A DNA stretch of 64,000 bases, taken from NCBI RefSeq assembly GCF_011057715.1, contig NZ_LNGH01000054.1, forward strand, positions 1-64,000, in the 5' to 3' direction. Shown one piece after another: positions 31,435-64,000 of the stretch (within the stretch, counting starts at the first letter, position 1; every line of letters begins with the position of its first letter). The translations under genes and the position numbers were made by a program. The notes under the pieces were generated by a model. The model was not told where the DNA came from. It searched no databases and was given only the letters and a program-made list of their open reading frames with translations. This DNA comes from Marinitoga sp. 38H-ov (GTDB lineage: Bacteria > Thermotogota > Thermotogae > Petrotogales > Petrotogaceae).

Positions 31435-31575
31435 GATGAGTAATCTATCCATCGCTTGGGTAGGTTTGGGATAGATGAAAGGCGAAGTTGCCGAAGGGTA
31501 TAAGGCTTACCCACCTTATACGCCTGGTTATATAAGGAATACTTATATAACTGTCGCTTAATGCGGAGAGCCGTT
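31418..31575 (+). ncRNA. Lysine riboswitch (L box)
   Basis: The conserved blocks appear in order: GGAGGCGCAACTAAGATGAG at 31421, GGGATAGATGAAAGGCGAAG, then TTGCCGAAGGGTATAAGG, and finally TGTCGCTTAATGCGGAGAG at 31552-31570. These are the hallmark L-box elements with the five-helix junction. Lysine binding should promote the downstream terminator and shut off the NhaC transporter, so import is on when lysine is scarce. Confidence 0.92.
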
Positions 31576-31628
31576 TGGAATAAAATTACTTTATTTCAAA
31601 CGGCCTTCTAATGAAGGCTTTTTTTATT
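31569..31628 (+). terminator. Riboswitch expression platform
   Basis: A long stem CCGTTTG...CAAACGG (31571-31603) is followed by GCCTT-CTAATG-AAGGC and seven T (31603-31625). The two stems share bases near 31603, so they can compete, giving terminator or antiterminator states. Confidence 0.75.
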
Positions 31629-48396: not shown

Positions 48397-49053
48397 CTAT
48401 CTTTCTATAATCCTCCAATTTCTTTTTTTCGCAATTCTTTTTAGTCTAAAGTCCGGAGAAACACAGATAGGATTTCCTACTGATTCTAAAAGAGGTAAAT
48501 CTGATATTGAATCGCTATAAAAATATGCATCTTTTAAATTGAAATTCTTTGATTGACATAATTTCTTAGCTTCAATAACTTTATTTTCTTCATACATATA
48601 TACATCTAACTCTCCTGTTATTATTCCATCTTTTATTATAGTTCTAGTGCATAAAGCATCATCAAATTTTAAATATTCAGCTACTGGATTTACTATTGAA
48701 TCTGGCGAAGCAGAAATTATAACAAGATATGCATTATTATTTCTATGATATTCAATTTCTTTTTTTATACTTTCCCTTATATGATATTTCCCATCTTCTT
48801 CAAACCATTTTTTTGCAAACCCAAAAGCATCATCTACCTTTTGCCCTTTATATCTTAAAGCCATTTCTCTTGTCATCTTTTCCATATCCTTTATTTCAAA
48901 ACCAAGTTTATAAAACACAGTAAATAATCCCATTCTATAATATTCCCAAATAGAAAATTTACCATGTTTTATCTCATATTTATAATACAATTGAGGGCTA
49001 TATTTATCTAAAATAGTTCTATCTAAATCAAAAAAAGCTACATAATCTTTCAT
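48397..49053 (-). CDS. HAD-superfamily phosphatase, subfamily IB (SerB-like)
   Basis: Encodes 218 residues. The catalytic DxDxT motif is VAFFDLDRTILDKYS, motif II is the LVIISASPDS serine, and the late acidic motif is AYFYSDSISDLPLLESVGNP. An alpha-helical cap of type 1 lies between. Members dephosphorylate small metabolites such as phosphoserine. The lysine of motif III is probably in NKVIEAKKLCQ. The substrate is not determined. The protein is soluble. Confidence 0.85.
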   Translation of the reverse strand: MKDYVAFFDLDRTILDKYSPQLYYKYEIKHGKFSIWEYYRMGLFTVFYKLGFEIKDMEKMTREMALRYKGQKVDDAFGFAKKWFEEDGKYHIRESIKKEIEYHRNNNAYLVIISASPDSIVNPVAEYLKFDDALCTRTIIKDGIITGELDVYMYEENKVIEAKKLCQSKNFNLKDAYFYSDSISDLPLLESVGNPICVSPDFRLKRIAKKRNWRIIER

Positions 49054-49275
49054 ATTTACCTCCTAATAAAAATATATGGAAATTATACCATATTTTTGTA
49101 TTTAATAACAATCTAATGATACACAGATTAATTGAATCAAATGTTAATATTTACTTTTATTTAATATTTTAGTTACTAATATTGAAATAATTTTTATTAT
49201 AATAACATTAATTTAATAAAAAATATTTATAAAATTAAATACTTGTAAGGTAAAAATCAAAATAGGAGGTGTAAT

Positions 49276-50172
49276 ATGAAAAAGATAGTTTTAGTGGTAT
49301 TTATTATGATTGTATCTTTTATTTTAACTTTTGGAGACTATAATGTCTTAATTCCTAGTTCTAAAAATTTTATTGAAACAGTAGAGATTGAAAACTACAA
49401 AATTAAATATTTATACTTAAAAGAAATGGAGAAATATATTAACACTGATAAAATATCGTTTGGTAAAAAGGGTAATATCGTATTGTTTAAGGAAATGGGA
49501 AGAAATAATTTATATATTTCCAATTTAGAGAATTTAGTTAAATGGAATGTTATTACATTAGATAATTTCCCAATACCTTCATATGATTCTACTTTTCGAT
49601 TTGTAACAAATGATAATTCCGTAGTATTTTTTTATAATAATAATAAAAACTTGGAAATTTATCAATACTCATTACCAGATAAAAAATGGGAGTTAATAAA
49701 AACTTATTCAGATTCAGTATATTTTGATATTGATCCATCAAAAATAAACAATAATTTTTTATCTTTTGTTATACAAAATAGCGAAGAGAAATTAGAACTT
49801 CATCTTTTAAATATAACCAATAGCGATGATACTCTGGTAAAAAAGAATTTTATTGGTTCAACCAAATTAGACGTAAATACAAAAGGAGATGTAATTCTTA
49901 TAAACAATATAAAAATTGAATACTATAATAATGAATCTAAAATAATAAAAGAAATAGATTTAAAAGATGCTTATCCAGAAATAATAATGGATGAACCATA
50001 TTTTGTAACCTTTATAAATGACAATGATGTTGCTATATATAGCAGTAATAAATTAATAATACTTAATACTAAAAACTGGAAAATAAAAGATGTTATATAT
50101 GAAATACCTGATAATATAGTTGGTTTGACAGGTTTAAATGATGGTAGTATTTTAATAAATATTTATGAATGA
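49276..50172 (+). CDS. Exported beta-propeller-like protein, paralog 1
   Basis: Encodes 298 residues with a signal peptide (MKKIVLVVFIMIVSFILTFG). The mature part is a string of short beta motifs (IVLFKEMGRNNLYISNLENL, VVFFYNNNKNLEIYQYSL, DVAIYSSNKLIILNTKNWK), suggesting a WD40-like propeller. It is almost identical to the gene at 58665-59570, with the differences concentrated in the signal peptide and a few residues. It starts the exported-protein island. The function is unknown; secreted or periplasmic binding is a guess. Confidence 0.65.
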   Translation: MKKIVLVVFIMIVSFILTFGDYNVLIPSSKNFIETVEIENYKIKYLYLKEMEKYINTDKISFGKKGNIVLFKEMGRNNLYISNLENLVKWNVITLDNFPIPSYDSTFRFVTNDNSVVFFYNNNKNLEIYQYSLPDKKWELIKTYSDSVYFDIDPSKINNNFLSFVIQNSEEKLELHLLNITNSDDTLVKKNFIGSTKLDVNTKGDVILINNIKIEYYNNESKIIKEIDLKDAYPEIIMDEPYFVTFINDNDVAIYSSNKLIILNTKNWKIKDVIYEIPDNIVGLTGLNDGSILINIYE

Positions 50173-50193
50173 GTATGCTATAAAAAATTTATA

Positions 50194-50288
50194 AATTACA
50201 ATAGTATTTCTAAGTTATAATAACAAAAGATAATTATTTTACACATTTAAATAACGGGAAATACAATATATGCTATGAAACTCCATAA
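50194..50288 (+). pseudogene. Remnant of a lipoprotein C-terminus
   Basis: The bases align with the last part of the lipoprotein gene at 54002-54100, including the AGCAAAAGATAATTATTT stretch and the GGGGAAATTATTATGTATG end in degraded form. Stops interrupt the reading. It shows that a lipoprotein gene once stood before the membrane-protein copy here, as at 53-55 kb. Confidence 0.6.
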
Positions 50289-50954
50289 TTTGATAAATAT
50301 ATATTTTAGGAGGTCTTATGAATTATTTAATTATTGGTATTATTGGAAGAATTCAAATTTTAGATTTAAATTAATAATTTTTATAATCTCAATAATAATT
50401 TTGTATTTCCAGCTAAAAATATTATATAACTTATACTTTAATCCTTTATATATAATTGAAAAATATTATAATACAATGGAAGTAGCAACAAGACAATATG
50501 AAACTTATCTTAAATATACTATTGATTATGAAAAAGAAAGATTAAATGAACTTTTAAATGAAATTATTGAAGAAAGAGGAAAAATAGTATTAAATCCAGA
50601 AAAAGCTAAAAGTTTAATGAAAAAATATTATATTGATTTAGAAAAAGAGGAAGTAATGATTTATATTGAAAGTGCACTTTCTTCAGATTCAGATTATTAC
50701 TATAAAAACATAAAAATAACACAATATGGATATGAAAATATATATTAAATCCAGAAATAGCCTCGATTACTCTGGACTCTAATGGTAAAATTATAGAAAG
50801 AACAATTGTTACAGACGGATTAAAAAAAATAAAATATCCAGAAAATGCTGAAATAACCTTTTATATAGTAAGAACATGGAAAGGATTAAAAATTGATTGG
50901 ATTAAATCTGTTTATAATTATAACAGTATTGAACCTAAAAAAATCGGATATTAA
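50275..50954 (+). pseudogene. Frameshifted copy of the single-TM cassette protein
   Basis: Codons to 50748 encode a cytosolic basic start, one membrane helix (FKLIIFIISIIILYF) and a helical domain. The reading then hits TAA in an ATATATATTA run and continues one frame over from 50745, through NPEIASITLDSNGKII to a stop at 50954. The second half matches the 217-aa gene at 54312-54965 (EITFYIVRTWKGLKIDWIKS). One base change in the TA-rich run would restore it. Confidence 0.75.
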
Positions 50955-50992
50955 TAAAAACCAAAGAATTATTATATAAAGGGTGTAAAAAT

Positions 50993-51677
50993 ATGAAAAA
51001 ACTATCTATCTTATTCATTTTGTGTATTACTATTAATATTTTTTTCAATAACCTCTATAAACCCATTACCTTTTATTGATGATGATATTTTAAATTTGGA
51101 TTTTATTAATAAATCAAAATTTTCATTGAATTATGGAATTCTAAATTTCATTGAAATTAGTGGTGGAATATCAACAGAAGGAATAGCAAAAATTAAGATT
51201 AATACAAATTTTATTGAGCAAATTCCATTAACAAGCGCAATTAGTTTAGGATATTTTCCAGGTTTTTATTTATCAGATAACTATTTCCTTTTATTATATT
51301 GGATAATTGGGTATAAAAATAAAAGAATTATATTATCAAATGGTACAAGATTAACAGTGAATTTTTCCAGCTTGGTAACAATCTGTGATATTTCAAATTA
51401 TAATACTGCAATATGGAATATAAACGATTTTTCTTCGATAAGTGTAGAAAATCTATTTACCTGGTCAGATAAAGGATTTTCATATTCAACAATATATTTA
51501 TATTTAAATGGATTATTAAAAAACATATCCTTTATCAAAAATATAAATATAAGCGGTGGAATAAAAGAGGATTTACTAAATAATAATTTTGGTTTTATTT
51601 TTGGAGCATCTATTGAAATAGATATACCAGAAAATATCAATAAATTAGAAAAATTATTAAATAAACTTAAAGATTAA
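50993..51677 (+). pseudogene. Exported beta-barrel-like protein with a T7 frameshift in its signal peptide
   Basis: ATG at 50993 opens a signal peptide (MKKLSILFILCITINIFF) that runs into a stop in frame 2. The mature part starts in another frame from 51039 with ITSINPLPFIDDDILNLDF. The break is in a run of seven T at 51039-51045; six T would join them. The mature 210 residues are rich in alternating hydrophobic/polar strands with many Gly, Asn and Ser and could be a small outer-membrane barrel. The gene is followed by a thi-leader fragment and a terminator. Confidence 0.65.
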
Positions 51678-51703
51678 AAAATACAGCCAAACTCCCTTGA
51701 AAT
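51670..51703 (+). repeat. Copy of the 5' thi-leader region
   Basis: TAAAGATTAAAAAATACAGC and CCCTTGAAATAAAA match 60721-60760, which contains the -35 box of the thi promoter (TTGAAA). The TATAAT part is not present here. It lies directly behind a cassette gene, as the real leader does at 60722. Confidence 0.65.
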
Positions 51704-51739
51704 AAAATTCTTCTACTGCTTAAACAGTAGAAGAATTTT
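51704..51739. terminator. Bidirectional terminator before the SGNH gene
   Basis: AAAATTCTTCTACTG and CAGTAGAAGAATTTT form a 15-bp perfect stem with a 6-nt loop. Confidence 0.8.
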
Positions 51740-51747
51740 AATATGAA

Positions 51748-52410
51748 TTATGTATTTGATATTATCATTTTTGCTAAATTATATGCACCATAATCATTTA
51801 AATGAACACCATCTATTGTAGTAACTAAATTCCTCATTTTACTGGTAATTTTTGATATTAAAGGAGTTCTAACAAAAATAGAATCTAGTACCATACCAAA
51901 AGGATTTTTTGATATAAAAGTGTTTGAATTTTTTACAACTTCTTTTTGCCAACTATTAAAATCAATATATTTAACATTATATCTTTTGCACATTTTTATT
52001 ATTATTTCATTGTATTCATGTACTTTCTTATTTAAATCACTATTTAAAATTTCTCCAATCATCGGAATGCTAACAACATAAACCTTCTTATGTTTTACCT
52101 TATTTATCATTTTTTCATAATTATTTTCAAATTCATCTTTTGTTTCTGAAGGAACCCTTCCAGATTTAATAATGCTTTCTATTGATCTTTCCCACATTTT
52201 TGAATAAGATCTTAAGAATGGCAATAATATATCATTTGTACCAATTTCTATTACTAATTCATCATATTTTTCAAAATTTAAAACCTCTAATCTTTTGGTA
52301 AGATTTAAAACAGTATCTCCACCTAAACCAAAATTTATACCCTCTAAATATTTTACATAAGATACTCCAGGCTTACCTTCTGTTATACTATCTCCAAAAC
52401 ATGCTAACAT
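51748..52410 (-). CDS. SGNH/GDSL-family hydrolase
   Basis: Encodes 220 residues with block I LACFGDSITEG, block III IEIGTNDILLPF and block V TIDGVHLNDYG, giving the Ser-Asp-His catalytic set and the Gly/Asn oxyanion residues. There is no signal peptide, so it is cytosolic. These enzymes act as esterases or thioesterases. It is on the opposite strand to its neighbours, between a thi-promoter fragment and a thi-terminator remnant, so it may be a mobile or inserted gene within the island. Confidence 0.85.
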   Translation of the reverse strand: MLACFGDSITEGKPGVSYVKYLEGINFGLGGDTVLNLTKRLEVLNFEKYDELVIEIGTNDILLPFLRSYSKMWERSIESIIKSGRVPSETKDEFENNYEKMINKVKHKKVYVVSIPMIGEILNSDLNKKVHEYNEIIIKMCKRYNVKYIDFNSWQKEVVKNSNTFISKNPFGMVLDSIFVRTPLISKITSKMRNLVTTIDGVHLNDYGAYNLAKMIISNT

Positions 52411-52560
52411 ATTATCCCCTCCATACCAACGATTATAACAGAATTCTTTTAAGTTGACAATAATTTAAAATATATATTAATACACACAGCAAATTAATTT
52501 AAATTAAGTTTTTCTTTTCACTTGATTTAGTTAATAATACCAAAAAAAGTGTAGAATAAT

Positions 52561-52745
52561 AATCAATCTCCTGCTTCGTGCAGGGGATTTTTTGTTATTT
52601 ATATATAATAATTTTTTAACTCAATTAATATATCATATGATATGATAATTTAGTAAATTTATTGAATTTTATAAATATAAAATTAATAGCAAAGTTACCA
52701 TGATTTTGTTTATTTTTTTTTTTTTTTTGATAAAATTATAGCGAA
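52561..52745 (+). repeat. Direct repeat with thi-terminator remnant and T-tract promoter, copy 1
   Basis: The bases 52561-52592 repeat the thi riboswitch terminator (AATCTCCTGC...GCAGGGGATT). About 150 bp of AT-rich DNA with ATATCATATGATAT at 52630-52643 follow. The whole stretch matches 57384-57562. The 365-bp gap 52411-52775 otherwise holds the upstream side of the SGNH gene and nothing else that I can see. Confidence 0.75.
52709..52736 (+). promoter_or_regulatory. T-tract-spacer promoter with 16-T run
   Basis: TTTATT (52709-52714) and TAAAAT (52731-52736) lie 16 nt apart, with a run of 16 T starting at 52713. The sister copy at 57531 has 13 T and its boxes are 14 nt apart. Boxes are weaker than in the cassette promoters. 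Confidence 0.5.
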
Positions 52746-52775
52746 TTATCAAGATATAAAACTTAAGGTGAAAAT

Positions 52776-52997
52776 ATGAGAAAAATTTTTATTATGTCTG
52801 TGATTTTATTAACAATGTTGCTGTTGAATACTTTAACTACTTTTTATATTTCGAATTTAAATAATAATAACGTTCCTAATCCTGATATATTTTATAAAAA
52901 TACCAAAAATTTAAATATTGAAAAAGAGTTCTTACAGAGTAAAGAATACACATTAAGCAAAATTTTTTATTCTATATATAGAAAACAGGTATTATAA
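52776..52997 (+). CDS. Small exported or membrane-anchored protein
   Basis: Encodes 73 residues with a signal-like N-terminus (MRKIFIMSVILLTMLLLNTL) and an Asn-rich stretch. It ends after a basic C-terminus (KIFYSIYRKQVL) without any domain. It is the first gene after the T-tract promoter of this unit. It could be a truncated remnant of a longer gene. No family is recognised. Confidence 0.4.
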   Translation: MRKIFIMSVILLTMLLLNTLTTFYISNLNNNNVPNPDIFYKNTKNLNIEKEFLQSKEYTLSKIFYSIYRKQVL

Positions 52998-53076
52998 TTA
53001 TATTTACAATAATATTTTAATCAACAATAGCACACTATTTATTGTAAAAAATAAAAAATGATAGTAGGAATTGTGA

Positions 53077-54100
53077 ATGAAAAAAGAAATAGTATATGTT
53101 TTAATTCTTTTTATTAGTATATTTTTTATATCATGTACTAATGTAAAAAAATAGAAAAAATGTTGAATATAATAATGGTTTAGAAAGTTCTGTGTATGAT
53201 AATAATGTTATTAAAACATCTGAGTATTATACTAAAGATGGTTTTTTGGTATTCAAAAATTATTTTGAAGATGGAAATTTAGTAAAACAAGAGATATTTG
53301 ATAAAGAAGGTAATATAGAGTATACATTTGAAATAAAAAATGAAAAGATTTCTTCTATAAAAAATTCAAAGGGTCAAAAAATACCTGCTAATAAAATATA
53401 TTATTATAATAATATTAGTCATACAAAAGAATTATTTTTGCCGAATAAAATATTTACTTTTGAAGATTATCTTAATAATATAAAAGATAAAGGTGTTTAT
53501 GAATCATTGTATGATGAATTAGATACAGGACAATATACTTTTGGATATAGACTGGATACTACAAAAACTGGATATACTTATGGAGAAATGTCAAGAAGAA
53601 TATTTAATGCAACATTAAATACTATATTAGATATAGCTACAACTAACATTATTAATTCTATTGCTTCAGAATTAAAAAACTTCATTGAATATATACAATA
53701 TACAGGAGATTTTATTTCATATCTTAAAAACAATTTTAGAATAACAAAAACAACAACCAAAGAAGCAAGACATTATACATTAAGAAAAGTATATGTTATA
53801 CATTACATTTCAGAAAATGGAAATTGGAAAAAAGGATGGGAAAAAGTTTTTGCTATAGCTGAACGTAATTATAGCAGTTTATTAGTAAAAGTAGAAGGAA
53901 TAACAAAGTATAAATATAATGATAATGGCATAATAGAAACTCGAGAAAAACTTGATGAAACGACTATAACCAGAGGAAATCTTGATGTAAAGGATTCTCC
54001 AAATTACAATAATATTTCCCAGTTATGTTTAATAGCAAAAGATAATTATTTAAATTATATAAATGGGGGAAATTATTATGTATGGTACGAAAAACCCTAA
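53077..54100 (+). pseudogene. Putative lipoprotein frameshifted in an A7 run
   Basis: ATG at 53077 opens MKKEIVYVLILFISIFFISC, a lipoprotein signal with the Cys near residue 20, then TNVKK and a stop. The mature 302-plus residues continue in another frame from about 53147, passing NNGLESSVYDNN and reaching WYEKP at 54100. Seven A at 53145-53151 are the break; six would join both parts. The protein has repeated YxxDG and KxGN motifs at its N-terminus (MORN-like, antitoxin-type) and a helical C-terminus. An isolated GTG at 53192 is a possible but poorly supported separate start. Confidence 0.65.
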
Positions 54101-54315
54101 AAATTTATTTATCCAATATTAGGAATATTATCAGTATATTTACAACATTTATATATAACAACTATTTTAATCCATTACATGTATTAGAAAAATATTATGA
54201 TGCAATGTATTATGCTAATATATATTATAAAAATATTCTTGAAGATAATACATTATCTTCTAATACTATAAATGATTCCCTTAAATCTTATTTAAATAAA
54301 ATGATAGAAGTTTGA
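54082..54315 (+). pseudogene. Truncated single-TM cassette protein
   Basis: Encodes 77 codons, of which residues 22-76 match the 217-aa protein just downstream (NYFNPLHVLEKYYDAMYYAN, LEDNTLSSNTINDSLKSYLN). It is cut at MIEV, where the next copy begins. Its own start is not supported by a ribosome site. It is a tandem-duplication remnant and shows that the unit was copied and truncated in place. Confidence 0.6.
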
Positions 54316-54965
54316 TAAATATATATTTTAGGAGGTCTTATGAATTGTTTAATTATTGGCATTATTGGAAGAATATAGATTTTAGATTTAAATTAATAAT
54401 ATTTGTAATTTTAATAATAATTTTGTATTTCCCATTAAAATTAGTATATAACTTATACTTTAATCCTTTATATATAATTAAAAAATATTATGATGCAATG
54501 TATTATGCTAATATATACTATGAAAGTATTCTTGAAGATAATACATTATCTTCTAATGTTATAAATAATTCCCTTAAAGCTTATTTAAATAAAATGATAG
54601 AAGAAAGAAAAAAGTATGTTTTAAATCCAGAAAAATCAGAAAAACTTATGAAAAAATATTATACTTTTCTTGAAAATGATGCTTCATTAGTAATGGATAC
54701 AAATACAAGCAAAAGAAATATAAATATAAAAAAAAGAAAGAATGGATATATAGTTCATATTATAAATGGAGATTTAGTATCCTATGAATTGGATTCAAAT
54801 GGAAAGATTATAAAAAAAGTAATAGATAATAATAAGATGAAAAAAATAAAATATCCAGAAAATGCTGAAATAACCTTTTATATAGTAAGAACATGGAAAG
54901 GATTAAAAATCGATTGGATTAAATCTGTTTATAATTATAAACATCAGGATATTGATCAAAAATAG
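54312..54965 (+). CDS. Single-TM protein, intact paralog of the island
   Basis: About 217 codons. The first 30 residues are basic and aromatic (FRRSYELFNYWHYWKNIDFR), then comes one membrane helix (FKLIIFVILIIILYFPL), then an extracytoplasmic helical region with LKAYLNKMIEERKKYVLNPE. A small beta C-terminal domain (AEITFYIVRTWKGLKIDWIK) ends it. The ribosome site AGGAGGTCTT is followed by an ATG in the wrong frame; TTG at 54345 is the first plausible in-frame start and gives about 206 residues. Orientation looks like N-in, C-out. Function unknown. Confidence 0.55.
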   Translation: MINIYFRRSYELFNYWHYWKNIDFRFKLIIFVILIIILYFPLKLVYNLYFNPLYIIKKYYDAMYYANIYYESILEDNTLSSNVINNSLKAYLNKMIEERKKYVLNPEKSEKLMKKYYTFLENDASLVMDTNTSKRNINIKKRKNGYIVHIINGDLVSYELDSNGKIIKKVIDNNKMKKIKYPENAEITFYIVRTWKGLKIDWIKSVYNYKHQDIDQK

Positions 54966-55100
54966 TGAGCTATTTGTTAAAAAACAAAAAATGATAGAAG
55001 GGGAATGAAAAAGATAGTAGCATATGCTATTGTATCAAGACTGATTTGGATTTTTACCAAACTCTAAAGTGTTTGTTGAAAAAATATTAAGGGGGTAAAG
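54966..55100 (+). other. Remnant of another lipoprotein start
   Basis: The bases around 54985-55040 resemble 53041-53095, the start of the lipoprotein gene (AAAAATGATAG, then GGAATGAAAAAGATAGTAGC). The reading ends quickly. It is a third partial unit. Confidence 0.4.
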
Positions 55101-56204
55101 ATGAAAGTTATAAGTAATTTATCAGCAAAAAGAATAATTATTCTCTCTTTTTTATTGATTATCTATATCTCTATAGCTTTTTCAAGTGAATTAAAACAAC
55201 TTAATTTTGATCATATTTTTACAATATCCTTCAATAAAGAATATAAATATAAAAACAACTATATAGTTTTATTCTCACCAAAAGATTCATGGGGAAACGA
55301 TTTTGATTTTCAATGGACAATAAATGAGAAAGGTAACATTTATATATTTAAGAATTTGAATAAATTTAACAATACAGAAATAACTGCATATAAAATTGAC
55401 ATATTAGAAAATACAGTAAAAATGATAAAATTAAACACTTTGATTCCAGCTCCATTTCCTCCATGGATAGATATTTTAGATGTCTATGCAAAAAATGATA
55501 AGATATATTTTTTGACATTTGGGGGTATAATAGTATTTAATCAAAATTTTAGATTTATCGATTTTTATATATTTGAAGATGTTGCTAATTCAATTACTGA
55601 AAAAACAAAAAATGAATATGAAAATGGTGTGTATTTTATTCCATATAATCACGGGAATCAGATAATTATTGATAATAATGAAAATATAATTATTAGAGAT
55701 ATATGTAGTGTTAAAATATATTCTTATTCTGGAAGAAATGAAAAAATTTTTGGTGGAAAAATATATTCATTATCAAATAAATATAGTCTAAATGCAAAGG
55801 ATAATGAATATCCTTTATTGTTGGAAAATGATAATGGTGAGATATTTATTGCTCTTTTCAAAGAACCAAATTTAAAAGAAGATTATATTTTTAATAAAAT
55901 AGAGATTTTTAATTTGAATGATGAAAAGTCATTTGAATTAAAAATGAAAAATAGAAAATTTTATCCTACAGCAGCTCTATTAAAAAATTATCTTTATGTA
56001 CTTACAATGGCGTCAAATAGTTCAAATTCATATTTACAAAGTTTAAAAATAAATATGAACGATGATAAAACATTATTTAAAATAAATGAAGAGAAAAATA
56101 ATATATATTACCGTTTTAACGATATTAAAGTAAAAAAAGTATTTAATAATAAATATATTTTTATAAGATCATATGATAAGTTGGAAGTTTTTAAAGAATT
56201 TTAG
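55101..56204 (+). CDS. Exported beta-propeller-like protein
   Basis: Encodes 367 residues. A signal anchor (RIIILSFLLIIYISIAFSSE) is followed by many short beta repeats such as IYFLTFGGIIVFNQNF, ENIIIRDICSVKIYSYSG and FPPWIDILDVYAKN. The repeats suggest a propeller like the 298-aa paralogs but with low sequence similarity. The start has GGGGG 7 nt upstream. It lies between two pseudogene units. The ligand is unknown. Confidence 0.6.
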   Translation: MKVISNLSAKRIIILSFLLIIYISIAFSSELKQLNFDHIFTISFNKEYKYKNNYIVLFSPKDSWGNDFDFQWTINEKGNIYIFKNLNKFNNTEITAYKIDILENTVKMIKLNTLIPAPFPPWIDILDVYAKNDKIYFLTFGGIIVFNQNFRFIDFYIFEDVANSITEKTKNEYENGVYFIPYNHGNQIIIDNNENIIIRDICSVKIYSYSGRNEKIFGGKIYSLSNKYSLNAKDNEYPLLLENDNGEIFIALFKEPNLKEDYIFNKIEIFNLNDEKSFELKMKNRKFYPTAALLKNYLYVLTMASNSSNSYLQSLKINMNDDKTLFKINEEKNNIYYRFNDIKVKKVFNNKYIFIRSYDKLEVFKEF

Positions 56205-56238
56205 CAAAGCGGGAAATTATAAGTGAGAGGATGCGAAT

Positions 56239-57242
56239 ATGAAAAAGTACATTACAGGTATTTTAATAGTATTTTTAACTATTACATTATATAGCCAGTG
56301 ATTATTTTTATTTAAAACTATCAACATTAATGATCTTGACATAAATAAATATGCAAATAAAAAATATTTATTTGATAAAAAGCTGGTGTTGATAAATAGT
56401 ATAGTTGATGAATCTGGGAATATTTAGGTTATAGCTGAAGATCAAAATCCATCGCTAAATTACAAAAAAGCGTATTTTTTAAAAACAAATATATTTTCTA
56501 AAAAATTAGAAACCTTTTCGGAAATTGAAGAGAAAATAGATACGAGTGATCTTGAAATGATAGTTGAAAAAGAAAATATATATTTAAAAACTCCAGATGG
56601 AATATATAAGTATGACAAAAATGGGAAACTAATAGAAAAAATGATGTATGAATCTAATAAAAAAATACACCAAATGGGAAATTTATAAAAATCAATAAAA
56701 ATGAACATATAAGTATGGATTTCCCTGTTTATAATAGACCAGAGTATTATATATACAGATTAAATTATAATAGAGAAAAATTAGAGAACAATATATTAGT
56801 AAAAACTCATGAAATAATACGCAATTTATTTAAGGATAAAGATGGAATATATGTTTTCACACATAATATCGAAAATGATATTTACAATATATATCTTTTA
56901 AAATATAGAGAACTTAAAAAATTATACTCATTACCGGGATATAAATTTAAAACAATCGGGAAATTTAAACCAAATGATAGCGATCATGAAGTTTTATTTC
57001 ATAGTATAAAATCAATAGGAATAATCGATAAAAAAATATATTTTATAGTTCAGTTAAAAAACTCAAAAAACAAAAATTTATTGTTATTTGATATAAGAAA
57101 TAAAAAAGAAGAATATATAAAATATAAATATAATGAAGAAAATTATCCAGAAAGATTGGTGGAAATTAATAATGAGGAATATCTTATTTATAATGGGAAA
57201 CCATATGAGAATTATGATTTTAAAATATATAAACTAAAATAG
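56239..57242 (+). pseudogene. Decayed exported beta-propeller-type gene
   Basis: ATG 56239 opens a signal peptide (MKKYITGILIVFLTITLYSQ) followed at once by TGA. A second stop (TAG after SGNI) follows, and the frame is then lost in an A7 run near 56659-56665, after which the reading continues to 57242 as PEYYIYRLNYNREKLENNIL and ENDIYNIYLLKYRELKKLYS. Three separate lesions make it a pseudogene; only the last 175 codons are open. It is related in style to the propeller genes around it. Confidence 0.7.
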
Positions 57243-57294
57243 ATTGTTGATACAGAGTTTTCATCCACTTAAGATATATAAAAATTCACCTCCT

Positions 57295-57411
57295 GTAACT
57301 GAGAGTGAGTTGGAAGCCTATGACCCTTACAACTTGATCTGGTTAATACCAGCGAAAGGAGCGGAGCAGAGATGAAAATCCAAATCAATCTCCTGCTTCA
57401 TGCGGGAGATT
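57295..57411 (+). ncRNA. Truncated TPP riboswitch aptamer with its terminator
   Basis: From GTAACTGAGAGTGAG the sequence follows the thi leader: GACCCTTACAACTTGATCTG, GTTAATACCAGCGAAAGGAG, CGGAGCAGAG and the terminator. The 5' part with the GGGG and the P1/P2 strand is missing and replaced by unrelated sequence. The aptamer should not fold fully, but the terminator can form. It precedes the 57620 gene and its T-tract promoter, not a thiamine gene. Confidence 0.8.
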
Positions 57412-57562
57412 TTTTGTTATTTATATATAATAATTTTTTAACTCAATTAATATATCATATTATATTATAATTAAGTAAATTTATCGAATTTTAGAAATAT
57501 AAAATTAACAGCAAATTTACTGCGATTTTGTTTACTTTTTTTTTTTTTGATAAAATTATCAG
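57384..57562 (+). repeat. Direct repeat with thi terminator and T-tract promoter, copy 2
   Basis: Near-identical to 52561-52745, including the AATTTTTTAACTCAATTAAT block and the TTAATATATCAT element. The T-run is shorter, 13 instead of 16. Confidence 0.75.
57531..57556 (+). promoter_or_regulatory. T-tract-spacer promoter with 13-T run
   Basis: TTTACT (57531-57536), 12 T plus GA as spacer, then TAAAAT (57551-57556). The spacing is only 14, so this copy may be weak or off; AATTAT at spacing 17 is an alternative -10. Confidence 0.45.
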
Positions 57563-57579
57563 CGAATAATTGAAAGTTT

Positions 57580-57591
57580 ACTGGCGCCAGT
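57580..57591. promoter_or_regulatory. Perfect 12-bp palindrome ACTGGCGCCAGT
   Basis: Third TGGCGCCA-core palindrome, between the T-tract promoter and the start codon of the 57620 gene, as for the two genes at the left end of the window. Confidence 0.45.
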
Positions 57592-57619
57592 TCATAGAAA
57601 ATACATTGGAGGGATGGTA

Positions 57620-58114
57620 ATGAAAAAGTGGTATATTTTTATTGTGTTAATAGTATTATTTGTAACAAGCTTAAATGCAGCAAATATCTTAAAGACAGTT
57701 ACTGAATATCATTATTCTTATTTAAATAGTTCAAAATTAGGTGAAACAGCATGGGAATATGTAACTGGTGAGGAAAATAGAAGTTCGATATCTGAAAATT
57801 TTAATTATTCAATTAAGTTAACGAATTCCTGGAGTTGGTCGCTAAGTATAGATATTTTGGGTAAATTAGGATTAGGTTCAAAAAAGGAGGATTCAACAGA
57901 AATTACAAGAACATATAATGTATCAATTCCCCCATATTATGGTTGGTACTTATATAAAAAAACTTCTCATACTAGATACTATTATAAATACTGGGTAGAA
58001 GAGAAAGAAATTTATGATGATGGCACTATGAAAACTGTTGATAGGAGTATTGATCAATTATTTTATAAAACGGTAACTAGTGAAACCACAAAAACAGAAT
58101 TAAAAGGTCTGTAA
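57620..58114 (+). CDS. Exported protein with an aromatic, beta-rich mature domain
   Basis: Encodes 164 residues. The ATG at 57620 is 6 nt after GGAGGG; one at 57614 abuts the site and is rejected. The signal peptide is MKKWYIFIVLIVLFVTSLNA. The mature part alternates Ser/Thr/Asn with aromatics (ENFNYSIKLTNSWSWSLSID, RTYNVSIPPYYGWYLYKKTS), followed by charged strands. This pattern resembles secreted beta-pore or adhesin-like proteins in which an amphipathic hairpin lies next to an IPPxxxGxY strand. That is a resemblance only. It sits under the T-tract promoter and palindrome. Confidence 0.6.
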   Translation: MKKWYIFIVLIVLFVTSLNAANILKTVTEYHYSYLNSSKLGETAWEYVTGEENRSSISENFNYSIKLTNSWSWSLSIDILGKLGLGSKKEDSTEITRTYNVSIPPYYGWYLYKKTSHTRYYYKYWVEEKEIYDDGTMKTVDRSIDQLFYKTVTSETTKTELKGL

Positions 58115-58122
58115 ACAAATAT

Positions 58123-58155
58123 TCCCCATAACATTATTTGTTATGGGGAATTAAA
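58123..58155 (+). terminator. Hairpin after the 57620 gene
   Basis: TTCCCCATAAC and GTTATGGGGAA pair (58123-58133 and 58141-58151); the following T-run is poor, so termination may be weak. Confidence 0.5.
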
Positions 58156-58335
58156 ATAGTCTCTGGAATAAATCTAGGAGAAAATAAAAAAACAATGAAA
58201 ATTACAAATATGTAAGATTAAAAGAATTCAGAATAATACAGATAGAAAAAAGGGTAAAAACAAGTATTGTACAAGGGCGCAAAAATAGAAATATTTAGTT
58301 AATAATTATTAATTAATTATTATTGATTATTACTA

Positions 58336-58560
58336 TTATCCTTTAAAAACACCATTTTTTAGAAGTTTGAGATAATTCAATAAGATTGTAAGGTGTATTT
58401 TAAGCATATAATAAATACTTCTAACTAATTTTCTAGTAGTAAAAATAACAGTATCTTTCTGAGATTTACCTTGATCTTTTTTCTTTTTGTAATAAGAAGT
58501 GGATCATATATACCAAATTAGTCAGACTATTCAAAGCACCTTTTATACATGATGGATAGA
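58336..58560 (-). pseudogene. Remnant of an IS110-type transposase C-terminus
   Basis: On the minus strand the reading YKKKKDQGKSQKDTVIFTTR, then KLVRSIYYMLK, resembles the end of IS110/IS116 transposases (the KGKxxKxALxxxARKLV part). Upstream the frame shifts (YDPLL). It ends with stop codons at 58336. No ends, inverted repeats or catalytic part remain. The 550-bp gap 58115-58664 holds only the hairpin and this remnant. Confidence 0.5.
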
Positions 58561-58664
58561 ATTACTTTAGTTATATAATAATGCAGATTTAGAATTCTTT
58601 TTTTAAAAATAAATATCAGATTTATTAATTATATGAAAACATTATACACGAGAGGGGTGAAAAT

Positions 58665-59570
58665 ATGAAAAAGATAGCTTTAGTGATATTTATTTTAAGT
58701 GTATCTTTTATTTTAATTTTTGGAGATTTTAATGTCTTAATTCCAGGTGCTAAAAATTTTATTGAAACAGTAGAGATTGAAAATTACAAAATTAAATATT
58801 TATACTTAAAAGAAATGGAGAAATATATTAACACTGATAAAATATCGTTTGGTAAAAAGGGTAATATAGTATTGTTTAAGGAAATGGGAAAAAATAATTT
58901 ATATATTTCCAATTTAGAGAATTTAGTTAAATGGAATGTTATTACATTAGATAATTTCCCAATACCTTCATATGATTCTACTTTTCGATTTGTAACAAAT
59001 GATAATTCCGTAGTATTTTTTTATAATAATAATAAAAACTTGGAAATTTATCAATACTCATTATCAGATAAAAAATGGGAGTTAATAAAATCTTATTCAG
59101 ATTCAGTATATTTTGATATGAATCCATCAAAAATAAACAATAATTTTTTATCTTTTGTTATACAAAATAGTGAAGATAAATTAGAACTTCATCTTTTAAA
59201 TATAACCAATAGCGATGATACTCTGGTAAAAAAGAATTTTATTGGTTCACCCAAATTAGACGTAAATACAAAAGGAGATGTAATTCTTATAAACAATATA
59301 AAATTTGAATACTATAATAATGAAACTAAAACAATAAAAGAAATAGAATTAATGGATGCTTATCCAGAAATAATAATGGATGAACCATATTTTGTAACCT
59401 TTATAAATGACAATGATGTTGCTATATATAGCAGTAATAAATTAATAATACTTAATACTAAAAACTGGAAAATAAAAGATGTTATATATGAAATACCTGA
59501 TAATATAGTTGGTTTAACAGGTTTAGATGATGGTAGTATTTTAATAAATATTTATGGTTATAAAGGATAA
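58665..59570 (+). CDS. Exported beta-propeller-like protein, paralog 2
   Basis: Encodes 301 residues. It is a near-duplicate of the gene at 49276-50172, with 9.4 kb between them. Its signal peptide differs (MKKIALVIFILSVSFILIFG) and it ends in YGYKG rather than at YE. Similarity extends from the ribosome site to near the stop at the DNA level. It is followed after 5 nt by a TolC-like gene, probably in one transcript. The lower divergence compared with the decayed neighbours suggests recent copying or gene conversion. Confidence 0.65.
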   Translation: MKKIALVIFILSVSFILIFGDFNVLIPGAKNFIETVEIENYKIKYLYLKEMEKYINTDKISFGKKGNIVLFKEMGKNNLYISNLENLVKWNVITLDNFPIPSYDSTFRFVTNDNSVVFFYNNNKNLEIYQYSLSDKKWELIKSYSDSVYFDMNPSKINNNFLSFVIQNSEDKLELHLLNITNSDDTLVKKNFIGSPKLDVNTKGDVILINNIKFEYYNNETKTIKEIELMDAYPEIIMDEPYFVTFINDNDVAIYSSNKLIILNTKNWKIKDVIYEIPDNIVGLTGLDDGSILINIYGYKG

Positions 59571-59575
59571 TAAAA

Positions 59576-60718
59576 ATGTTGAAAAAATTGTCATTTTTAA
59601 TAATAATTTTTATATCTATTTTTGTGTTTGGGAATGAAAAAGAATATTCTTTTGAAAAACTTATTTTATCCGGGACAAATAGCTCATACGAAATAAAAGT
59701 TATAGACAGCAAATTGCATAATTTAAATACAATTAATTTATTGAAAGATATTATTCAACCTAACTTATCTTTAACTCTTAATAATAATTTTATTAATTTA
59801 TCAACATCTATTTCCATTTCTTCGATTATTATGGCAAATTCAAAAGTATTTAGATATAATCTTGAAAAAGAATATAATTCTTTGAGTAAAAAACAAAAAA
59901 AGAATGAGGTTATATACCGTATTTTAAATTTGTATTCCATGATTTATAACGAGAAAGAATTACTTGAACTATATTTAAAAATTAATGATATTCTAAAAAA
60001 GAAAGAAAATTCTGAGGAATATATTCAAATAATAAATGAATTAGAAAATAGAATATATTTTAAAAAAATTACAATAGAAGAAATGGAATTAGATTTAAAA
60101 AATATTATAGGAATGGATACTTCTATAAAATATTTAAATTTATGTGAAAGTCCAAGTTTTTTAGAGATTTTAAAAAGGATAAAAATAAATATAAGTGATG
60201 GACCTCTTAATTTTGAAATATCTAAATTAGGAAATAAATTAAATGATAAAAATTCATACATTAATAATTTTTCAAATATTGCAGATTTTTATTTAGACAC
60301 AAACTTTGAAACCCATGATTATGGTGTTCGTTTGAATTTATTTAAATTTTCAGGAGTAAATTTATCTTTAAACTACTCACTCAAAAGTAATTATTTTAAT
60401 ATTTCGATTTATGTCAATTTTGGAAATATAGGGAAAATAAATAATTTAAATTCTCCAGAATTTAATGAAAAGAAAGAAGAATTCTATTATAGAGGAAACA
60501 TAGATATTATGTATAAAAATTATCTGTTTTATCAAAAAAAGTATAATGATATAAAAAAAATATTAGTAAACTTTAATTTTAAAACGTCAACAGTGGAAAA
60601 TTTGATAAAATATCTACAAATATATGAAAATTTTATACAAACTATAGGAATATATGTTCAAAACACATTGAAATTAGCAAAGGAAATTGGAATTTTAGAT
60701 GAAATCTATCAAAAATAA
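59576..60718 (+). CDS. Exported coiled-coil/beta-strand protein, TolC-like candidate
   Basis: Encodes 380 residues with a signal peptide (LKKLSFLIIIFISIFVFGNE). A long helical region around 105-200 (KVFRYNLEKEYNSLSKKQKK, LLELYLKINDILKKKEN) is followed by beta-rich segments (YGVRLNLFKFSGVNLSLNY, YFNISIYVNFGNIGK) and a final helix. This helix-strand-helix order is like outer-membrane efflux proteins of the TolC group, but no diagnostic motif is clear. It is the last gene before the thi leader. The organism's sheath-like outer envelope would suit such a protein; that is inference. Confidence 0.5.
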   Translation: MLKKLSFLIIIFISIFVFGNEKEYSFEKLILSGTNSSYEIKVIDSKLHNLNTINLLKDIIQPNLSLTLNNNFINLSTSISISSIIMANSKVFRYNLEKEYNSLSKKQKKNEVIYRILNLYSMIYNEKELLELYLKINDILKKKENSEEYIQIINELENRIYFKKITIEEMELDLKNIIGMDTSIKYLNLCESPSFLEILKRIKINISDGPLNFEISKLGNKLNDKNSYINNFSNIADFYLDTNFETHDYGVRLNLFKFSGVNLSLNYSLKSNYFNISIYVNFGNIGKINNLNSPEFNEKKEEFYYRGNIDIMYKNYLFYQKKYNDIKKILVNFNFKTSTVENLIKYLQIYENFIQTIGIYVQNTLKLAKEIGILDEIYQK

Positions 60719-60748
60719 ATTAAAGATTAAAAAACACAAATAACTCTC

Positions 60749-60777
60749 TTGAAATAAAAGTAAAATAATGGTATAAT
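60749..60777 (+). promoter_or_regulatory. Promoter of the thi operon
   Basis: TTGAAA (60749-60754), a 17-nt spacer and TATAAT (60772-60777), about 35 bp before the riboswitch. Confidence 0.75.
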
Positions 60778-60810
60778 CAAAATTGAGATTATAAAAAGTA
60801 AATAAAAAAG

Positions 60811-60955
60811 AGCCGCAGGGGAGCTACTAATCCGTAGCTGAGAGTGAGGCGGAAGCCTCTGACCCTTACAACTTGATCTGGTTAATACCAGCGAAAGGAG
60901 CGGAGCAGAGATAAAAATAAAAATCAATCTCCTGCTTCGTGCAGGAGATTTTTCT
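60811..60955 (+). ncRNA. TPP riboswitch (THI element) with terminator
   Basis: Conserved parts in order: CAGGGGAGC, GTAGCTGAGAGTGAG, GACCCTTACAACTTGATCTG, GTTAATACCAGCGAAAGGAG. The terminator AATCTCCTGC-TTCGT-GCAGGAGATT (60926-60950) with five T follows. AGGAGCGGAGCAGAGA can pair with its left arm as antiterminator. Thiamine pyrophosphate binding should stop transcription of thiSGH-thiC. Confidence 0.96.
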
Positions 60956-60973
60956 ATATCAGGAGGTGATATC

Positions 60974-61171
60974 TTGAGATTATATATAAACGGTAAAGTA
61001 AAAGAGTGTAAAAGCAGTACATTAAAAGAATTACTCGAAGAACTTTCTTTCAGTAACAAATCTGTTGTTGTAGTAAAAAATGGCGAAATTATTCCCATAA
61101 AAAATTATTCTGAACATCATTTATCTGAAAATGATAAAATTGAAATCATTACCGTAGTAGGAGGTGGTTAA
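60974..61171 (+). CDS. thiS: Sulfur-carrier protein ThiS
   Basis: Encodes 65 residues of the ubiquitin-like ThiS fold. TTG start follows AGGAGGTGAT. RLYINGKVKECKSSTLKELL opens it and VVGGG ends it; the diglycine-type tail is thiocarboxylated to donate sulfur for thiazole. Typical ThiS ends in GG, and here one extra G precedes. It is the first gene of the TPP-controlled operon. Confidence 0.93.
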   Translation: MRLYINGKVKECKSSTLKELLEELSFSNKSVVVVKNGEIIPIKNYSEHHLSENDKIEIITVVGGG

Positions 61172-61931
61172 TATCAATTTTTACAGTGAAGAAATTAACA
61201 ATCTATTTTTTATGGGTACTGGAAAATTTCGAGATTATAATATCATGAAAAAAGCTATAGAAGAAGCAAATATTGAAGTTGTTACCGTTGCAATGAGAAG
61301 AGCATCATATAGTAATACAAATGAAAGTATCCTGGATTATATTAATGTAAAAAAAATAATGATAAACACATCTGGAGCAAGAAATGCAGAAGAAGCATTA
61401 TTAATTGCAAAAGCTGGAAAAGAATTAATGAATACAGATTGGGTAAAAATAGAAATCATAAACGATTCAAAGTATTTAATGCCGGATAATCAAGAAACTA
61501 TAAAAGCATGTAAATTATTAACTGAAAATGGTTTTAAAGTATTTCCTTATATGCATCCTGATTTATATGATGCACGAAAAATGATAGAAAATGGTGCAGA
61601 AGTCTTAATGCCACTTGGCTCACCAATAGGTACAAACAAAGGATTCACAACAAAGGAGCTTGTAAAGATTCTTTTAAACGAATTTAATGTGAAGATAATA
61701 ATAGATGCAGGAATAGGAAAACCATCACATGTAGCAGAGGCTATGGAATCAGGATGTCATGCAGTTCTTGCAAACACAGCAGTTTCAATAGCAGATGATC
61801 CTGTCAAGATGGTAAAGGCTTTTTCTCTTGCTGCTGAAGCTGGAAGACTTGCATATTTATCAGGAATGCCCGAAGAAAAAGAGGTGGCAGAAGCATCTTC
61901 GCCATTGTTCGATTATATAGGAAGAGATTGA
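61164..61931 (+). CDS. thiG: Thiazole synthase ThiG
   Basis: Encodes 255 residues, TIM-barrel type. It has the substrate-binding FFMGTGKFRDYN, the catalytic-lysine region in VKIIIDAGIGKPSHVAEAM, and the C-terminal PLFDYIGR. It condenses deoxyxylulose phosphate, dehydroglycine and ThiS-bound sulfur to the thiazole. The GTG at 61164 overlaps its own ribosome site and the end of thiS by 8 bases. No better start is visible nearby, so the exact start is uncertain. Confidence 0.94.
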   Translation: MVNINFYSEEINNLFFMGTGKFRDYNIMKKAIEEANIEVVTVAMRRASYSNTNESILDYINVKKIMINTSGARNAEEALLIAKAGKELMNTDWVKIEIINDSKYLMPDNQETIKACKLLTENGFKVFPYMHPDLYDARKMIENGAEVLMPLGSPIGTNKGFTTKELVKILLNEFNVKIIIDAGIGKPSHVAEAMESGCHAVLANTAVSIADDPVKMVKAFSLAAEAGRLAYLSGMPEEKEVAEASSPLFDYIGRD

Positions 61932-61932
61932 C

Positions 61933-63000
61933 ATGTTTTCTGAGAATGTTGAAAAAATTATCAAATATATAGAAAAAGAAAGAAAAAAAGAACACCATAT
62001 CAACTTAAAAAAAGATTTTTTTGCTGTAAATGAAATATTCGGTTTGCTTGAAAACACAAATCTTCGAACAATGGCGAAGAAAGTAATGAAAAATAACAGA
62101 AAGTTCTTTGGTGATGTTATATTTTTATACGCCCCATTATATATATCAAATTATTGTATAAATGGTTGTACATATTGTGGATTTAAAGCAACAAACAAGA
62201 TTCAGAGAAAAAAATTAATCTATAATGAAATAGAAAAAGAAGCTATATATTTAAAAGATGCAGGTATAGACCATGTTCTCATATTAACAGGTGAAGATCC
62301 TATAAACACAGATTTAGATTATCTATATAATACAATAAAATTATTGAAAAGATTTTTCAAAGAAGTTTCTATAGAAACCTATTCTTTAAAAGAAGACGAA
62401 TATAAAAAGCTAATATCAGCAGGATTAATAGGTGTTACAATGTATCAGGAGACATATTGTATAAAGAAATATAAAGAAGTTCATCTTTTTGGTCCAAAAA
62501 GCGATTATAAAAAACGATTAGATACAATCGAATATGCAATAAAATCTGGTGTTAGGGAAATAAATATTGGAGCATTGCTTGGATTATATGAACCAGAATT
62601 TGAAATAATAATGCTTGCGTATCATATGGATTATCTGTTAAAAAATTATCCTGAGATAGAATATGCAATATCCTTTCCAAGGATAAAATCTGCATATAAT
62701 GTAAAAGAGAAATTTTTTAATATTTCAGATAAAACCCTTATACATTATATTTTAGCTTTAAAATTAATTTTTCCAAGAGTTCATATAAATATTTCAACTC
62801 GTGAAAATGCGGATTTTAGAAATGCCCTCATAGGAATTGCAACAAAGATGTCAGCAGGTTCAACAACAAATGTTGGTGGCTATACTATATATAAAAAATC
62901 AATAAAGCAATTTGAAACAGAAGATAAACGAAACTTTCAGGAGTTTATTAACTATATAAAAAGTAGAGGATATAATCCTACAACAGTAAACTGGTTTTAA
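61933..63000 (+). CDS. thiH: 2-iminoacetate synthase ThiH
   Basis: Encodes 355 residues, a radical-SAM enzyme with the cluster motif CINGCTYCGFK (CxxxCxxC). It makes dehydroglycine from tyrosine for ThiG. Such a tyrosine lyase, rather than the oxygen-needing ThiO, is expected in an anaerobe. RENADFRNALIGIATKMSAG and GGYTIYKKS are typical of ThiH. It starts 1 nt after the thiG stop. Confidence 0.94.
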   Translation: MFSENVEKIIKYIEKERKKEHHINLKKDFFAVNEIFGLLENTNLRTMAKKVMKNNRKFFGDVIFLYAPLYISNYCINGCTYCGFKATNKIQRKKLIYNEIEKEAIYLKDAGIDHVLILTGEDPINTDLDYLYNTIKLLKRFFKEVSIETYSLKEDEYKKLISAGLIGVTMYQETYCIKKYKEVHLFGPKSDYKKRLDTIEYAIKSGVREINIGALLGLYEPEFEIIMLAYHMDYLLKNYPEIEYAISFPRIKSAYNVKEKFFNISDKTLIHYILALKLIFPRVHINISTRENADFRNALIGIATKMSAGSTTNVGGYTIYKKSIKQFETEDKRNFQEFINYIKSRGYNPTTVNWF

Positions 63001-63012
63001 GGAGGAAAGAAA

Positions 63013-64000
63013 ATGACACAATTGGAATTCGCAAAAATGGGAGTTATTACGGAAGAGATGATAATTGCAGCAAAGCATGAAAATATATCACCAGAAATAT
63101 TAAGAGAAAAAATAGCTGTTGGAAAGGCGGTATTACCAAAAAATAAAAATCATCATTTTAAAAATATCAGAGCTATCGGTGAAGGATTAAAAACAAAGGT
63201 AAATATTAATATTGGTACTTCTCAGGGATATACAGATTTGAATGAAGAGTTGAAAAAACTTGAAATTTCAGAAAAATATGGTGCAGATTCAATAATGGAC
63301 CTTTCAACATGGGGAGATTTAAGTTATATAAGAAATGAAATAATCAAAAATTCAAATATCATGGTTGGGACGGTACCTGTATATGATGCTGCAACAAAAG
63401 CCATACAACAGAAAAAAAGGGTAATTGATTTTGAAGCTGAGGAGTTCATTCAAATGGTAAAAGACCATGCCGAAGATGGTGTTGATTTTATGACAATACA
63501 TGCAGGTATCACTAGAACAACCATTGAAAAATTGAGAAACTCAAAAAGAATAACAAAAATAGTCTCACGTGGTGGTTCAATAATCGTTGGATGGATGATA
63601 AAAAATCACAAGGAAAATCCATTTTACGAATTTTATGACGAAATACTGAAAATATGTAAAGAATACGATATAACAATAAGCCTTGGTGATGGTATGAGAC
63701 CCGGATCCCTCTACGATGCAACCGATGACCTTCAATTTGAAGAATTATTGAGATTAGGTGAACTGGTAAAAAGGGCTCGTAATGCTGGTGTTCAGGTAAT
63801 GGTTGAAGGGCCGGGCCATATGCCAATCGATGAAATTGAGGCCAATGTGATATTACAAAAGAAAATCTGTGATGGAGCACCTTTCTATGTACTTGGTCCA
63901 ATTACAACGGATATTGCCCCAGGATACGACCATATAACCTCTGCAATAGGTGGAGCTATTGCCGCATCCAAAGGAGCAGATTTTCTTTGTGCAGTAACAC
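63013..64000 (+). CDS. thiC: Phosphomethylpyrimidine synthase ThiC (partial, runs off the window)
   Basis: About 329 codons are present from ATG 63013 with GGAGGAAAG upstream. The reading opens MTQLEFAKMGVITEEMIIAA and includes AVLPKNKNHHF, NINIGTSQGYTDLNEELKKL, ADSIMDLSTWGDL, SRGGSIIGWM-like SRGGSIIVGWMIKNHKENP and VEGPGHMPIDEIEANV. It is a radical-SAM enzyme that makes the pyrimidine half of thiamine from AIR. The C-terminal cluster motif lies beyond the window end. Confidence 0.95.
   Translation, partial: MTQLEFAKMGVITEEMIIAAKHENISPEILREKIAVGKAVLPKNKNHHFKNIRAIGEGLKTKVNINIGTSQGYTDLNEELKKLEISEKYGADSIMDLSTWGDLSYIRNEIIKNSNIMVGTVPVYDAATKAIQQKKRVIDFEAEEFIQMVKDHAEDGVDFMTIHAGITRTTIEKLRNSKRITKIVSRGGSIIVGWMIKNHKENPFYEFYDEILKICKEYDITISLGDGMRPGSLYDATDDLQFEELLRLGELVKRARNAGVQVMVEGPGHMPIDEIEANVILQKKICDGAPFYVLGPITTDIAPGYDHITSAIGGAIAASKGADFLCAVT

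What the first reader, a model, noticed from the sequence alone, without database searches (positions are those of the whole stretch)
51670..60955. Thiamine-operon leader pieces mark the borders of exported-protein units
Promoter-side leader DNA recurs at 51670-51703; the terminator recurs at 52561-52592; the aptamer plus terminator recur at 57295-57411; the full leader is at 60749-60955. Exported-protein units lie between the copies. The simplest reading is that cassettes were inserted or amplified repeatedly at the thi leader, leaving a partial leader each time. Using a riboswitch as a recombination landmark seems unreported to me.
Basis: partly seen in the sequence, partly recalled or inferred. 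Interest (0 to 1): 0.75.

Follow-up and report, generated by a model that had tools for sequence, protein, structure and literature searches.

The report
Thiamine riboswitch leaders between exported-protein operons
In Marinitoga, a genus of heat-loving marine bacteria, the RNA switch that controls the vitamin B1 operon was copied, with its stop signal, between neighbouring operons for exported proteins; most copies have decayed but the stop signal survives, so they record repeated recombination next to the vitamin operon.

Summary
Pieces of the TPP-riboswitch leader of the thi operon (60713-60953) recur at 51659-51707, 52555-52592 and 57295-57414, far above shuffled controls.

The genus is Marinitoga. 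In M. lauensis the same order of units is separated by two COMPLETE leaders, with no thiG found in that assembly. Other species show partial, aptamer-less or terminator-plus-promoter remnants at the same borders. M. piezophila-like G002 and a sister genus have the leader with no unit upstream. A standalone copy of unit 3 in another species has no leader. So exported units really were joined to, and moved with, the thi leader.

"Each insertion leaves a partial leader" is only partly right. Partials are mostly old, truncated full copies, shared between species. Some joints lie at another promoter or inside genes. The terminator hairpin alone also ends unrelated genes.

Best reading: units upstream of thi rely on the leader's terminator. 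Leader-bearing units were rearranged by ordinary homologous and microhomology recombination. Without thi downstream the aptamer decayed while the terminator was mostly kept. No integrase or mobile carrier was found. Whether TPP still gates the units in M. lauensis is open.

The parts
49276..51677 (+). Exported unit 1: beta-propeller-like exported protein A' (49276-50172), membrane protein of a paralogous family (50275-50748), end of a presumed outer-membrane barrel protein (ORF 51096-51677)
   Evidence: ORFs; A' is 97% identical in DNA to 58665-59570 over the coding region only. Fold and barrel assignments are low-confidence or by inspection
51659..51707 (+). Leader piece U: end of the unit's last gene plus the thi promoter up to just past the -35 (TTGAAATAAAA)
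   Evidence: 86% to 60713-60759; same piece in relative G001 and, followed by a complete leader, in M. lauensis
51703..51740 (.). Bidirectional terminator-like hairpin between unit 1 and the GDSL gene; the G001 orthologue has the leader's stem core CTCCTGC/GCAGGAG, the window copy CTACTGC/..AGTAG
   Evidence: (self-palindrome)
51748..52410 (-). GDSL-type lipase/acylhydrolase gene
   Evidence: Pfam PF13472, E 7.6e-18
52454..52510 (+). Decayed copy of the promoter of the flanking gene 'c6'; the intact single copy lies here in near-identical genome G001
   Evidence: G001 homology ends at 52475; sequences printed
52520..52592 (+). Leader remnant: eroded 3' aptamer end plus intact terminator hairpin (stem 52565-52589)
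52593..52749 (+). Promoter module M (16-T tract between -35-like and -10-like boxes) of exported unit 2
   Evidence: 91% to 57415-57570; family of copies in all seven genomes
52776..57242 (+). Exported unit 2: small exported/membrane proteins and paralogues; last gene (to 57242) is broken here, intact (356 aa) in G004
57295..57414 (+). Partial leader: 3' two-thirds of the TPP aptamer plus terminator (stem 57387-57411)
   Evidence: 92.5% to 60834-60953; Rfam 35.7 bits, below cut-off; same 5' breakpoint in G004
57415..57572 (+). Promoter module M (13-T tract) of exported unit 3
57614..60718 (+). Exported unit 3: c19 (57614-58114), A (58665-59570), c9 (59576-60718)
   Evidence: ORFs; the same three genes after M but without leader in G006 contig C23
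60713..60953 (+). Complete thi leader: promoter (-35 60749, -10 60772-60777), TPP aptamer 60807-60916, terminator stem 60926-60950
60974..61171 (+). thiS (TTG start, ends ..VGGG)
   Evidence: read from the sequence
61164..64000 (+). thiG, thiH, thiC (continues past the window; then ThiD-like and ThiF-like genes in G004)
   Evidence: NCBIfam for thiH, thiC, ThiD-like, ThiF-like; thiG named from operon context and size, not from a family hit

Best explanation
In an ancestor within Marinitoga, an exported-protein operon (promoter module M plus genes X) came to lie directly upstream of the thi operon without a terminator of its own. Its transcript then had to run into the thi leader, whose TPP-gated terminator became its only terminator. 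The stretch M-X-leader thereafter behaved as one block. Blocks were duplicated, moved and exchanged by ordinary homologous recombination between the shared sequences (leader, M, paralogous genes), giving X-leader-X-leader-thi arrays at several chromosomal sites. Where thi is no longer directly downstream, the aptamer decayed or was deleted between short repeats (AAATAAAA), while the terminator hairpin was mostly kept because it still ends the upstream unit. Shown: the shared copies, their positions, complete copies in M. lauensis, the conserved order, leader-free standalone units, absence of another + strand terminator in the window units. Inferred: the order of events, the terminator dependence, and homologous recombination as the agent.
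For: Complete leaders (70 and 80 bits) separate the same units in M. lauensis (G003), each followed by M, and thiG was not found in that genome. G004 has the same order with thi inserted at the second leader and a further 3'-aptamer+terminator+M after thi. Unit 3 standing alone in G006 has M but no leader. Zero-unit leaders: G002 and sister-genus G007, which keeps the terminator stem core. Aptamer deletion joints read TTGAAATAAAA|ATCAATCTCC in three places (one with a single base change). The only + strand terminators in 49000-61200 are leader copies; the stem keeps 9-10 pairs in six non-thi copies with G-U and one two-sided change (CTCCCGC/GCGGGAG). Within-genome homogenisation: L1/L2 of M. 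lauensis 98.1% against 90-95% to other species; A copies 96% within, 82-86% to G000/G004/G001. A second thi operon in G000 (contig C53) also has a degenerate leader, M, exported genes and a complete leader upstream, at a site that is empty in G005.
Against: Only seven genomes, several draft; contig breaks fall at these repeats in G000 and G006, so the join from C54 to C40 is inferred from G004. Two non-thi copies have lost the hairpin (G001 U-T-M, G000 C53 partial). Terminator function is not measured. The leader trees rest on about 110 sites with modest support. One joint in G000 is inside genes (50915-50923), so rearrangement is not confined to the leader.
Confidence: 0.68

Rival explanations
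1. One reading: cassettes were inserted again and again at the thi leader, each insertion leaving a partial leader; the riboswitch is a recombination landmark.
For: Copies sit at unit borders; units are absent upstream of the leader in G002 and G007; same leader-unit-leader-thi layout at a second site in G000.
Against: Complete copies exist, so insertion does not leave partial ones; partials share breakpoints across species; joints also at the c6 promoter and inside genes; no integrase, terminal repeats or plasmid/phage carrier of A found.
Confidence: 0.3
2. The leaders were kept as regulators: the exported units are (or were) TPP-controlled, each with its own riboswitch, like a thiamine-uptake regulon.
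For: Both M. lauensis leaders exceed the Rfam cut-off, one with the best score of all 32 matches listed (80 bits), although thiG was not found there; promoter and terminator are intact, and aptamer plus terminator fold as expected.
Against: Each unit has its own promoter module M after the leader terminator; most species have lost the aptamer; the exported proteins have no link to thiamine by Pfam.
Confidence: 0.15
3. The pieces are independent sequences: a common terminator hairpin, a common -35 region and chance.
For: The terminator hairpin alone also ends unrelated genes in G005 and G006.
Against: The aptamer piece (128 bits) and the order promoter-aptamer-terminator-M cannot be chance; complete copies in M. 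lauensis.
Confidence: 0.03
4. M. lauensis shows the state before thi arrived: leader copies spread first and thi was inserted later between them.
For: G003 has units and leaders with no thiG found; in G004 thi lies exactly between two leader copies.
Against: A thi leader must come from a thi operon; the leader with the same stem core precedes thi in another genus, so loss by recombination between flanking copies is simpler.
Confidence: 0.1

Closest known systems
Repeat-mediated duplication, deletion and gene conversion in tandem arrays of bacterial surface-protein genes
   Same: Paralogous exported genes, shared flanking repeats, within-genome homogenisation, deletion joints at short repeats
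   Different: Here one shared repeat is a metabolite riboswitch leader taken from a neighbouring biosynthetic operon
Genomic islands that leave partial tRNA genes at their borders (general knowledge; tRNA gene fragments are the subject of PMC9897764, seen here by title and abstract only)
   Same: Partial copies of a functional RNA mark borders of inserted DNA
   Different: No integrase or attachment core found; copies can be complete and include promoter and terminator; decay comes later
TPP riboswitch (Rfam RF00059) with terminator-type expression platform
   Same: The thi leader is an ordinary member with promoter, aptamer and terminator
   Different: Copies serve as spacers between operons that have no known link to thiamine
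Integron cassette arrays
   Same: Units separated by a recurring element
   Different: No integrase seen, no attC-like hairpin site, units have their own promoters, junctions fit homologous or microhomology recombination

Membership tests
TPP riboswitch RF00059 (60807-60916) | Score above Rfam gathering cut-off | tested here: met
   75.6 bits against 54.3
TPP riboswitch RF00059 (57295 copy) | Score above cut-off, closed P1 stem | tested here: not met
   35.7 bits; 5' part replaced by unrelated sequence
TPP riboswitch RF00059 (M. lauensis L1, L2) | Score above cut-off | tested here: met
   70 and 80 bits
TPP riboswitch RF00059 | TPP binding and gene control | not testable with these tools
   needs bench work
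Integrase-mediated cassette or island | Integrase or transposase and fixed core site | tested here: inconclusive
   no recombinase noted among ORFs of the loci read, but no dedicated family scan was run; joints differ between copies
Homologous-recombination repeat array | Direct repeats flank units; homogenisation within genomes | tested here: met
Homologous-recombination repeat array | Observed rearrangement between strains at the repeats | tested here: inconclusive
   G000 against G001: one insertion is bordered by leader pieces, another joint is inside genes

The most novel reading that the evidence does not exclude
In M. lauensis, which appears to lack the thi biosynthesis operon, the two complete leaders act as TPP-gated switches between exported-protein operons, so that vitamin level sets how far transcription runs along a surface-protein array, in combination with phase-variable poly-T promoters.
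Probability: 0.13. Interest if true: 0.78.

Novelty: new variant of a known kind. Interest (0 to 1): 0.5.

Why it matters
It shows how a regulatory RNA can be captured with its terminator by unrelated operons and then serve as repeat and border marker, leaving a readable record of rearrangement. Complete riboswitches left without their biosynthetic operon are a natural test of how riboswitches get new targets or die. Genome annotators should not read every TPP-like leader here as marking a thiamine gene.

Tried and rejected
Plasmid and phage records searched for protein A: none. ThiG in named genomes by single protein: no hit; protein A found only M. lauensis by name and no Petrotogaceae outside the genus in the genome search. 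Structure of c9 (pLDDT 37) and A (pLDDT 51) too poor for fold search. Literature searches for riboswitch leaders as duplication or integration landmarks found nothing on point; the closest word match, Renibacterium msa, concerns a terminator-like palindrome near duplicated genes and is not the same thing. Considered that the last codons of c29 were transplanted behind c9; a shared 19-nt block exists, but a standalone c9 has a weakly similar flank (14 of 19), so direction is left open. Dating of copies by divergence was attempted but homogenisation makes it unreliable.

Full report
Observation. The window is contig C54 (1-64000 of 65253) of a 2.26-Mb genome. Shuffled windows never came near these scores. 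Rfam finds the aptamer at 60807-60916 and, below its cut-off, the copy at 57244-57379. Two facts were missed. The 52555 and 57383 copies go on into a shared 155-bp promoter module M. And the 52555 copy is preceded by a worn 3' aptamer end, with the same junction as in relative G004.

Genus and gene content. The thi operon is thiS-thiG-thiH-thiC plus ThiD-like and ThiF-like genes (thiS and thiG from context). thiG is present twice in the window's genome (C54 and C53) and once in G002, G004 and G006; it was not found in G001, G003 and G005, which keep a TPP riboswitch before a thiamine transporter gene, ThiB. Protein A of the exported units occurs in 6 of 7 Marinitoga genomes and in none of 14 other Petrotogaceae.

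Comparative map. Gene labels c0, c3 and so on are clusters of similar ORFs made. Call the leader U-Ap-T (promoter side, aptamer, terminator). M. lauensis: M-X0-[U Ap T]-M-c19-A-c9-[U Ap T]-M-c21-c8-c27-c3-c7-U. G004: A'-c0-c3-c10-[Ap T]-M-c19-A-c9-[U Ap T]-thi-[Ap' T]-M-c21/c8-c27-c3-c7-[U T]-c6. Window: A'-c0-c29-[U]-GDSL-[Ap' T]-M-unit 2-[Ap T]-M-c19-A-c9-[U Ap T]-thi, with c8-c27-c3-c7-[U T]-c6 on contig C40. G001, with no thiG found: A'-c0-c3-c7-[U T]-M-others-c29-[U]-GDSL-c6. G006: c3 and an internally deleted c7 directly before U Ap T-thi, while c19-A-c9 stands alone elsewhere with M and no leader. G002 has no exported unit upstream of the leader, nor does G007 of another genus, whose thi terminator has the same stem core. 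The C53 copy of thi also has degenerate leader-M-exported genes-complete leader before it, at a site between two conserved genes that is empty in G005 and holds other genes in G001 and G004. The array thus sits at different chromosomal sites with the same inner order.

Joints. In three places the aptamer is missing with the joint TTGAAATAAAA|ATCAATCTCC (one with a single base change); AAATAAAA occurs on both sides of the aptamer, so a deletion between short repeats explains it. The truncated 57295 copy has the same 5' breakpoint in G004, so it is older than that split. Against G001, whose flanking genes are 98-99% identical, the window genome carries extra DNA between the GDSL gene and c6; its left edge is a worn c6 promoter followed by Ap'-T-M and its right edge is T followed by the intact c6 promoter. 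But another joint (50915-50923) is a 9-bp microhomology joint inside genes. So leader pieces are frequent borders, not the only ones.

Homogenisation. The two M. lauensis leaders are 98.1% alike and 90-95% like those of other species; its two A genes, on different contigs, are 96% alike and 82-86% like those of G000, G004 and G001. A and A' of the window are alike only over the coding region. This fits recombination among copies and spoils dating by divergence.

Why the pieces persist. Between c9's stop codon and the thi promoter there is no room for a terminator, and the scan of 49000-61200 finds on the + strand only the three leader terminators. The stem is kept in six non-thi copies, once by changes on both sides, while the aptamers decay; in two copies (G001, C53) it is broken. 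I infer that the leader's terminator became the terminator of the unit upstream. This is not shown by any RNA data.

Limits. Seven genomes, some in many contigs that break at these repeats; the M. lauensis assembly has many split genes and 87% completeness, so absence of thi there is likely but not certain. The terminator hairpin alone ends unrelated genes in G005 and G006, so terminator-only matches are weak evidence by themselves.

Verdict. A real and unusual arrangement: a riboswitch leader captured as spacer and probably terminator of exported-protein operons, moved by ordinary recombination. The searches of the held literature found no earlier report, which is weak evidence of novelty.

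Noticed in passing
window 1408-1421, 5436-5448, 27465-27477, 52713-52728, 57536-57548: All five A/T homopolymers of 12 or more in the window lie between a -35-like box (TTGTTTA, TTGACT) and a -10-like box (GATAAAAT, GATATAAT, TATAAT) of a dispersed promoter family; tract length differs between copies and between species before the same gene (e.g. about 8 to 17 T before c19). Candidate phase-variable promoters of exported proteins, peptides and transporters.
   Followed up: partly
L110 4649-12750 (G000 contig C53): A second, diverged thi operon (ThiH 72% to the window's) with its own leader and broken exported unit, at a site that is empty in G005.
   Followed up: partly
window 49276-50172 and 58665-59570; L108 and L124: Concerted evolution of gene A: copies on different contigs of M. 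lauensis are 96% alike but 82-86% like those of G000, G004 and G001.
   Followed up: partly
L111 18355-18400, L116 7740-7800, L106 8560-8620: The flanking gene c6 has a strong promoter followed by a palindrome TTCACTCAGTGAA, likely an operator; a copy of this promoter also flanks the c8-c7 unit in G004.
   Followed up: no
window 56240-57242: The last gene of unit 2 is broken by stops here and intact (356 aa) in G004.
   Followed up: no
window 31412-31581: Lysine riboswitch, 106 bits.
   Followed up: no
L152 2627-2664, L153 266-300, L113 2598-2633: The thi-type terminator hairpin (ATCTCCTGCTTCGTGCAGGAGAT) also ends unrelated genes, so it seems a recurrent terminator sequence in the genus.
   Followed up: partly
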